64,000 nt of DNA from Planctomycetota bacterium. Lineage in GTDB: Bacteria > Planctomycetota > Phycisphaerae > Tepidisphaerales > Tepidisphaeraceae. Below are positions 7,750 through 8,608 of the stretch, piece by piece. Position numbers and translations under genes: made by a program. Numbering within the stretch: position 1 is the first letter of the stretch; every line of letters begins with the position of its first letter. The notes beneath the pieces were generated by a model. That model was not told the origin of the DNA and did no database searches. It saw only the letters and a list, made by a program, of their open reading frames with translations. The stretch lies in contig JBCDCH010000001.1 of assembly GCA_039182125.1 (NCBI GenBank), forward strand, positions 1 to 64,000, given 5' to 3'.

Positions 7750-7814
7750 CCGTTACAGACTTGGCCGATGTTTCTCACGCGTGATTGTCGAACGCCGGGT
7801 TACGCTCGCCGGCC

Positions 7815-8237
7815 ATGGGAGCGATACGCCTGCGTCCGGTCGATGCTGCCGGCCTCGTTCTGATCCACGCCTATCGACGTTGGCTCTCGCCACGCAAGGG
7901 TTTCGCGTGCCCGCATCGCTTGCTCCACGGTGGCGACTCGTGCTCGGCATATGGCCTGCGTGTCATACGTCGAGCCGGGGTGCTGCGGTTTCGCCTGCTC
8001 ATGCAACGTCGGTTTGCCGCTTGCCGAGCGGCGGCGAAGGTGATCGGACGCGAGACCAAGCAACAACGCCGCGACCGTCGAAACGCGTTTCGTGACAACA
8101 CCATCGATGCCTGCGCGATGTCGGCCTGCGACGTGCCCAGTTGTGACCTTGGGCCGCTCGACTGCGGGGTCGCCGACGGGGCCGGTGTGTTCGACGTCGG
8201 CTGCGGCAACTTCGACTGCGCTTGCGATTTCGGTTGA
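7815..8237 (+). CDS. YidD-like membrane protein insertion factor with Cys-rich tail
   Basis: A 140-residue product. Residues 10-75 follow the YidD (DUF37) pattern: LVLIHAYRRWLSPRKGFACP, then a variant of the CSxYA box (GGDSCSAYGLRVI), then RFRLLMQRRFAACRAAAK. YidD is a small peripheral inner-membrane protein linked to YidC-dependent insertion. This copy has a C-terminal extension with about eight cysteines (ACAMSACDVPSCDLGPLDCG, GCGNFDCACDFG) that standard YidD lacks. I start at the ATG at 7815; another in-frame ATG at 7785 adds ten poor residues. It ends two bases before the convergent tRNA cluster. Confidence 0.7.
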   Translation: MGAIRLRPVDAAGLVLIHAYRRWLSPRKGFACPHRLLHGGDSCSAYGLRVIRRAGVLRFRLLMQRRFAACRAAAKVIGRETKQQRRDRRNAFRDNTIDACAMSACDVPSCDLGPLDCGVADGAGVFDVGCGNFDCACDFG

Positions 8238-8239
8238 GG

Positions 8240-8314
8240 TGGCACCGGCGGGAGTCGAACCCGCAGGTCACCTGTCTCTCGAACAGGCCGCTCTGCCGGT
8301 TGGCGTACGGTGCC
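8240..8314 (-). tRNA. class I tRNA, apparent anticodon GAG (Leu-type)
   Basis: On the minus strand the sequence folds into a full cloverleaf of 75 nt. It has acceptor GGCACCG/CGGTGCC with discriminator A, T8-A9, D stem CGC/GCG with GG in the loop, anticodon stem CCTGT/ACAGG with loop TCGAGAG, a 6-nt variable region and T arm GCGGG-TTCGACT-CCCGC. Positions 34-36 read GAG (Leu codons CUC/CUU), but position 33 is C instead of the near-universal U, and bacterial tRNA-Leu normally has a long variable arm. CCA is not encoded. The amino acid is therefore uncertain. Confidence 0.7.
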
Positions 8315-8333
8315 GGGGTGATGAGGGGGGGAA

Positions 8334-8408
8334 TGTCCGCGGCAGGATTCGAACCTGCACTGTTCTGGACCTGAGCCAGACGCCTCCTGCCAGTTGGGCT
8401 ACGCGGAC
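8334..8408 (-). tRNA. class I tRNA, apparent anticodon CAG (Leu-type)
   Basis: A 75-nt minus-strand cloverleaf. It has acceptor GTCCGCG/CGCGGAC, D stem GCC/GGC with TGG in the loop, anticodon stem TCTGG/CCAGA with loop CTCAGGT (U33, anticodon CAG, G37), variable region ACAGT and T arm GCAGG-TTCGAAT-CCTGC. The anticodon pairs with the Leu codon CUG and G37 suits a Leu tRNA, yet the short variable arm does not fit the class II shape of bacterial tRNA-Leu. CCA is not encoded. It lies 19 nt upstream of the GAG gene in the same array. Confidence 0.8.
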
Positions 8409-8417
8409 GGTGTGAAG

Positions 8418-8503
8418 TGGGTCGCGTCGGAGTCGAACCGATCGCGTGCCGCCCCAATGTTGTGTCGCATCTGCTTTACAGGCAGACATGGGGAACACGA
8501 CCC
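8418..8503 (-). tRNA. tRNA-like gene, apparent anticodon GTA (Tyr-type), D arm not recognisable
   Basis: An 86-nt minus-strand element. The acceptor pairs well (GGGTCGT/GCGACCC), the anticodon arm is TCTGC-CTGTAAA-GCAGA with anticodon GTA, and the T arm is ATCGG-TTCGACT-CCGAC with one mismatch. Between acceptor and anticodon stem there are only about 10 nt (GTTCCCCATG), too few for a D arm. The variable region is about 28 nt and contains CATTGGGG, which could pair with CCCCATG with one bulge. The length matches a tRNA-Tyr, but the architecture does not. It may be a degenerate gene or a tRNA-like RNA. Confidence 0.5.
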
Positions 8504-8537: not shown

Positions 8538-8608
8538 TGGGATGGGAAGGACTCGAACCTCCACCTTCCGAGTTTCAGTCGGACGCTCGACCATCGAGCT
8601 GCCATCCC
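8538..8608 (-). tRNA. tRNA, apparent anticodon GAA (Phe-type)
   Basis: A compact 71-nt cloverleaf on the minus strand. It has acceptor GGGATGG/CCATCCC with discriminator A, D stem GCTC/GAGC with a 7-nt loop, anticodon stem TCCGA/TCGGA with loop CTGAAAC (U33, anticodon GAA, A37), a short variable region, and T arm GGAGG-TTCGAGT-CCTTC with one G-T pair. CCA is not encoded. It is the first gene of the four-member array as transcribed, and the sulfatase terminator lies 52 bases upstream of it. Confidence 0.8.

What the first reader, a model, noticed from the sequence alone, without database searches (positions are those of the whole stretch)
8240..8408. Two class I tRNAs with Leu-type anticodons (CAG and GAG)
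Bacterial tRNA-Leu is class II, with a long variable arm. The genes at 8334-8408 (CAG, G37) and 8240-8314 (GAG, with C33) fold as complete class I cloverleaves with 5-6 nt variable regions. Such tRNAs might be charged by another synthetase and recode CUN codons, be regulatory or phage-derived, or be non-translational. They sit in a compact array with two other tRNA-like genes.
Basis: seen in the sequence. Interest (0 to 1): 0.6.

Follow-up and report, generated by a model that had tools for sequence, protein, structure and literature searches.

The report
Short-armed leucine tRNAs in tRNA cluster
Two real tRNA genes in this planctomycete lack the long side arm that textbooks give to bacterial leucine tRNAs, but they keep the known leucine-charging signals and belong to a little-described family of compact leucine tRNAs found in bacterial tRNA clusters, in phages and as ordinary chromosomal genes; they are very probably true leucine tRNAs and not a change of the genetic code.

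Summary
In detail: 8334-8408(-) (CAG, G37) and 8240-8314(-) (GAG, C33) are intact class I tRNAs with Leu anticodons, on top of a class II Leu set (CAG, GAG, TAG, CAA) elsewhere in the genome. The suggestion of another synthetase or of CUN recoding is not supported. Both tRNAs carry the leucine identity elements known from E. coli (A14, A15-U48, G18G19, A20a, A73). In related planctomycete tRNA arrays this set is found in 23 of 23 short Leu-anticodon tRNAs but in 1 of 78 other short tRNAs. The family's D-arm motif alone predicts a Leu anticodon in 223 of 225 tRNAs. The host's only detected tRNA-Leu(UAA) is also class I, as in other planctomycetes and in Okibacterium, so such molecules must be leucylated. 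The window cluster resembles the 18-29-tRNA arrays of same-family genomes. Its likely job is redundant CUG/CUC decoding, perhaps as a back-up set resistant to tRNA-targeting toxins; that role is inference. Short tRNA-Leu in a tRNA cluster has been noted in mycobacteria, so this is a new member of a known kind. I found no paper on the family-wide identity signature or the replacement of class II tRNA-Leu(UAA).

The parts
8240..8314 (-). class I tRNA-Leu(GAG), C33, A37, 6-nt variable region, A73; no encoded CCA
8334..8408 (-). class I tRNA-Leu(CAG), T33, G37, 5-nt variable region, A73; no encoded CCA
8419..8503 (-). tRNA-Tyr-like element (anticodon loop CTGTAAA = GTA): acceptor, anticodon and T arms present, D arm reduced to about 10 nt that can pair with the long variable region; probably decayed
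   Evidence: sequence; not found by ARAGORN or Rfam at E<=10; fold
8538..8608 (-). class I tRNA-Phe(GAA) with short 7-nt D loop, C8/G14; diverged from the host tRNA-Phe
7785..8237 (+). neighbouring ORF with YidD domain, convergent with the array (context only)

Best explanation
The two genes are leucine tRNAs of a short-variable-arm (class I) family. They are charged by the ordinary leucyl-tRNA synthetase through A73 and the D-loop/elbow elements (A14, A15-U48, G18G19, A20a), and they read CUG and CUC as leucine. They are redundant with the host's class II isoacceptors and belong to a four-gene tRNA cluster that is a small or reduced relative of the long tRNA arrays of same-family planctomycetes. 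Shown here: genes intact, identity set present, family coherent, and a class I relative is the only detected UUA reader in this genome. Inferred: transcription, processing, leucylation of these two molecules. Least certain: the benefit, most likely a diverged supplementary or back-up tRNA set whose altered anticodon loops and missing variable arm could escape tRNA-targeting toxins or nucleases.
For: Intact folds; stems 98-100% paired outside the 13/22 mismatch, with compensatory changes at nearly all variable pairs over 26 class I tRNA-Leu. Identity set in both window tRNAs and in 23/23 Leu vs 1/78 other class I tRNAs of planctomycete arrays, Fisher 7e-22; 21/30 vs 2/556 and 17/17 vs 1/118 in viral and genome loci after removing the tRNAs that matched the fetch pattern. 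The D-arm motif, which contains no anticodon, predicts Leu in 223/225 tRNAs. The E. coli leucine identity set is A73, A15-U48, G18G19, A20a, with the variable arm dispensable (PMC9976931). Own genome: class II Leu CAG/GAG/TAG/CAA but only a class I Leu(UAA). Okibacterium: all nine class II tRNAs read, none is Leu(UAA); a class I one is present. Long arrays in relatives hold class I Leu with CAG, GAG, CAA, TAA. Nearest own-genome relative of both window tRNAs is the class I Leu(UAA).
Against: No expression or charging data. The GAG gene scores low (42.9 bits) and has C33; its Tyr-like neighbour looks decayed, so this cluster may be partly dead. No convincing promoter directly upstream. Tests of sole UAA decoders in planctomycetes rest on draft genomes and could miss an intron-split class II gene, although the model and pattern searches found none in the own genome.
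Confidence: 0.82

Rival explanations
1. The tRNAs are charged by another synthetase and insert a different amino acid at CUN codons (recoding or regulated mistranslation).
For: Class I shape differs from the host's class II tRNA-Leu; C33 in the GAG gene is unusual.
Against: Full leucine identity set; family-wide link between D arm and Leu anticodons; class I Leu(UAA) is the only UUA reader detected; no G3-U70 alanine determinant and no long arm for SerRS in the sequences; CUC and CUG are the commonest Leu codons in ten window genes (157 and 121 of 349), so recoding would be proteome-wide.
Confidence: 0.04
2. The cluster is a decaying remnant of a horizontally acquired tRNA array and is no longer expressed or used.
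For: Only 3-4 genes against 18-29 in relatives; the Tyr-like member is degenerate; low score of the GAG gene.
Against: All stems of both Leu genes are paired; the GAG gene has compensatory swaps in its D stem (C10-G25, G11-C24); the identity set is kept. Decay would break these first.
Confidence: 0.25
3. Non-translational or regulatory tRNA-like RNAs, for example donors for aminoacyl-tRNA-dependent peptide synthesis or decoys.
For: The cluster specificities Phe, Tyr, Leu are frequent substrates of cyclodipeptide synthases (own knowledge).
Against: No such enzyme was recognised in the few flanking genes examined: YidD and a sulfatase. Relatives' arrays span most amino acids, which fits general decoding.
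Confidence: 0.04

Closest known systems
Short-variable-loop tRNA-Leu(TAG) in mycobacterial tRNA clusters (PMC6582537)
   Same: Leu anticodon on a class I body inside a tRNA cluster, redundant with a normal class II gene of the genome
   Different: Different anticodons and phylum; there it is noted in one sentence without an analysis of identity
tRNA array units of Mycobacterium, mycobacteriophages and plasmids (PMC5966550, PMC12803027)
   Same: Dense clusters of diverged tRNAs redundant with the host set; class I tRNA-Leu also occurs in actinophage genomes and in viral contigs
   Different: The window cluster has 3-4 genes, below the 20-gene definition; the relatives' arrays lie in chromosomes among housekeeping genes
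Chromosomal class I tRNA-Leu(UAA/CAA) of Actinobacteria (M. tuberculosis only Leu-2, 3 and 5 have a long loop, PMC11541572)
   Same: Same D-arm motif and identity set, class I body
   Different: Stand-alone housekeeping genes with UUR anticodons, often with encoded CCA
Mitochondrial tRNA-Leu (PMC9976931)
   Same: Leucylated without a long variable arm; A14 and A73 are the key elements
   Different: Organellar, with its own LeuRS; independent loss of the arm

Membership tests
Bacterial class II tRNA-Leu | Long variable arm (about 11 nt or more with a stem) | tested here: not met
   5 and 6 nt
Leucine-accepting tRNA (LeuRS substrate) | A73, A14, A15-U48, G18G19, A20a | tested here: met
   element set from PMC9976931
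Leucine-accepting tRNA (LeuRS substrate) | Actual leucylation | not testable with these tools
   needs a charging assay; indirect evidence from sole UUA-reading class I relatives
Short-variable-arm tRNA-Leu family | D arm GCCCAA(1-3 nt)GGNA(G)AGGC, C13.A22, class I body, Leu anticodon | tested here: met
   CAG gene matches directly; the GAG gene has compensatory swaps C10-G25 and G11-C24, with D loop and C13.A22 kept
tRNA array unit | At least 20 tRNAs at 2 or more per kb (PMC5966550) | tested here: not met
   3 recognised tRNAs plus one tRNA-like in 0.37 kb; relatives L366 (25 tRNAs) and L367 (29) do meet it
Phage-encoded tRNA | Lies in a phage or prophage | tested here: inconclusive
   YidD and sulfatase flank the window cluster and relatives' arrays sit by purA, rsmH, dnaX, pheT; similar genes occur in actinophages

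The most novel reading that the evidence does not exclude
The compact leucine tRNAs form a mobile, leucine-charged back-up set. Lacking the variable arm and carrying changed anticodon loops (A37 in all 15 class I NAG-Leu genes of the family's arrays against G37 in the host; C33 in 4 of 7 GAG genes and in the window), they escape enzymes that cut or modify host tRNAs at those places, and members of the family have displaced the class II tRNA-Leu(UAA) gene in several planctomycete lineages and probably long ago in Actinobacteria.
Probability: 0.22. Interest if true: 0.65.

Novelty: new member of a known kind. Interest (0 to 1): 0.42.

Why it matters
It corrects the rule that bacterial tRNA-Leu is class II: a coherent short-armed leucine tRNA family exists, is predictable from its D arm alone, is spread over Planctomycetota, Actinobacteria, phages and other groups, and can serve as the only UUA reader. 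It gives natural test molecules for which parts of tRNA-Leu LeuRS really needs, and for whether variable-arm and anticodon-loop changes protect tRNAs from toxins. It also warns annotators not to read recoding into such genes.

Tried and rejected
(1) Looked for a class II tRNA-Leu(UAA) hidden by a group I intron in the own genome: the one intron hit (C101:1769-2030) has no tRNA around it; D-arm and 5'-half patterns and a class II Leu(UAA) covariance model found none. (3) GOLLD RNA or other RNA families in the arrays: only tRNAs. (4) Mobile-element genes beside arrays: none recognised among the 20 flanking proteins scanned. (5) Recoding by another synthetase: rejected on identity elements. (6) Two literature searches with other wording found no dedicated paper.

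Full report
CHECK. ARAGORN and Rfam confirm tRNA-Leu(GAG) at 8240-8314, tRNA-Leu(CAG) at 8334-8408 and tRNA-Phe(GAA) at 8538-8608, all on the minus strand. A fourth element at 8419-8503 has an acceptor stem, an anticodon loop reading GTA and a T arm but almost no D arm; no program calls it. E-values of 2e-9 and 9e-6 in the 64-kb scan exclude chance for the two Leu genes.

HOST SET. The window lies in a 4.13-Mb draft genome (131 contigs, 100% complete by the tool's estimate). Reading its 53 Rfam tRNA hits gives ordinary class II tRNA-Leu for TAG, CAA, GAG and CAG, so the window pair is redundant. Surprisingly, the only tRNA-Leu(UAA) is itself class I (C9:77199-77271), and it is the nearest own-genome relative of both window tRNAs.

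IS THE UAA GENE REALLY THE ONLY ONE? The group I intron hit of this genome is not in a tRNA. A class II D-arm pattern finds only the four known genes plus non-tRNA matches. A 5'-half pattern finds nothing. A covariance model built from 15 class II tRNA-Leu(UAA) genes of the family gives as its best hit in this genome the class I gene itself. In the same family, a stand-alone tRNA-Leu(UAA) is class II in 15 genomes, class II with an intron in 3 and class I in 3 (G000, G012, G018); five gave no match. Eleven further planctomycete genomes with a stand-alone class I UAA gene returned, among the top model hits that I read, CAA, TAG or CAG class II genes but no UAA one; two control genomes returned their class II UAA gene at the top. 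In the isolate Okibacterium fritillariae all nine class II tRNAs were read: five are Ser or Tyr, four are Leu (CAA, CAG, GAG, TAG), and the UAA gene is class I. Since UUA is used (4 times in ten window genes), this shape must be leucylated and decoded as Leu, unless an unassembled or split gene exists.

FAMILY. In a sample of 244 Planctomycetota genomes 49 have a slightly relaxed form of the motif.

IDENTITY. Giege and Eriani (PMC9976931) list for E. coli tRNA-Leu: A73, the A15-U48 pair, G18G19 and A20a; the long arm is not needed, and mitochondrial tRNA-Leu does without it using A14 and A73. Both window tRNAs have A14, A15-U48, A20a and A73. In planctomycete arrays all 23 class I Leu-anticodon tRNAs have the set against 1 of 78 other class I tRNAs (Fisher 7e-22). 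After removing tRNAs that matched the fetch pattern, the figures are 21/30 against 2/556 in viral loci and 17/17 against 1/118 in genome contigs. The four host class II tRNA-Leu also have it.

SELECTION. Over 26 class I tRNA-Leu (planctomycete arrays, window, own UAA) acceptor, anticodon and T stems are 98.9, 98.5 and 100% paired, with compensatory changes at nearly all variable pairs; 13-22 is an unpaired C.A in 25 of 26. The window GAG gene has swapped C10-G25 and G11-C24 pairs, which argues against decay.

CONTEXT. Same-family genomes carry long arrays: 25 tRNAs in 2.8 kb in G004, 29 in 5.7 kb in G011, 18 in G016, with a conserved order Val-Ile-Arg-Lys-Leu-Arg-Ala-Leu-Leu-Ser-Ser-Asp-Phe. 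They sit among pheT, dnaX, purA and rsmH with no recognised integrase nearby. The window cluster (YidD gene on one side, sulfatase gene on the other) looks like a small member of this kind. Class I tRNA-Leu genes also occur in actinophages.

ANTICODON LOOPS. All 15 class I NAG-Leu genes in the planctomycete arrays have A37, where the host's class II genes have G37; 4 of 7 GAG genes have C33, against 4 of 92 in the arrays' non-Leu tRNAs. The window GAG gene has both; the window CAG gene keeps G37. [quoted passage not shown] A back-up role is therefore plausible, but nothing here tests it.

CONCLUSION. Genuine, probably functional leucine tRNAs of a short-armed family; no support for recoding. 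Short-loop tRNA-Leu in a mycobacterial tRNA cluster was noted before (PMC6582537), and M. tuberculosis has a long loop only in tRNA-Leu-2, 3 and 5 (PMC11541572). What I found in no paper is the identity-set test, the D-arm predictor and the replacement of class II tRNA-Leu(UAA) in planctomycetes; the library searched holds open-licence papers only.

Noticed in passing
8419-8503 (-): Tyr-like (GTA) element with acceptor, anticodon and T arms but a 10-nt D region (CCCCATG) complementary to its variable region (CATTGGGG); decayed tRNA-Tyr or an unusual tRNA-like RNA.
   Followed up: partly
G000:C9:77199-77271 (L348, L463): The host's only detected tRNA-Leu(UAA) is class I; same-family genomes mostly have a class II gene, so the class II gene seems to have been replaced.
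   Followed up: yes
L389 (G004), L393 (G001), L395 (G017): Class II tRNA-Leu(UAA) genes of same-family genomes are interrupted in the anticodon loop by introns of about 200-250 nt that look like group I introns.
   Followed up: no
L366 8152-10989, L367 5014-10715, L370 4626-6450: Long chromosomal tRNA arrays (18-29 tRNAs) with conserved gene order in planctomycete genera, next to housekeeping genes.
   Followed up: partly
7785-8237 (+): YidD-domain ORF with a Cys-rich C-terminal tail, convergent with the tRNA cluster and ending within 3 bases of it.
   Followed up: no
G000:C101:1769-2030 (L058 1501-1762): Group I intron-like RNA (51.3 bits) not inside a tRNA gene; its host gene was not identified.
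   Followed up: no
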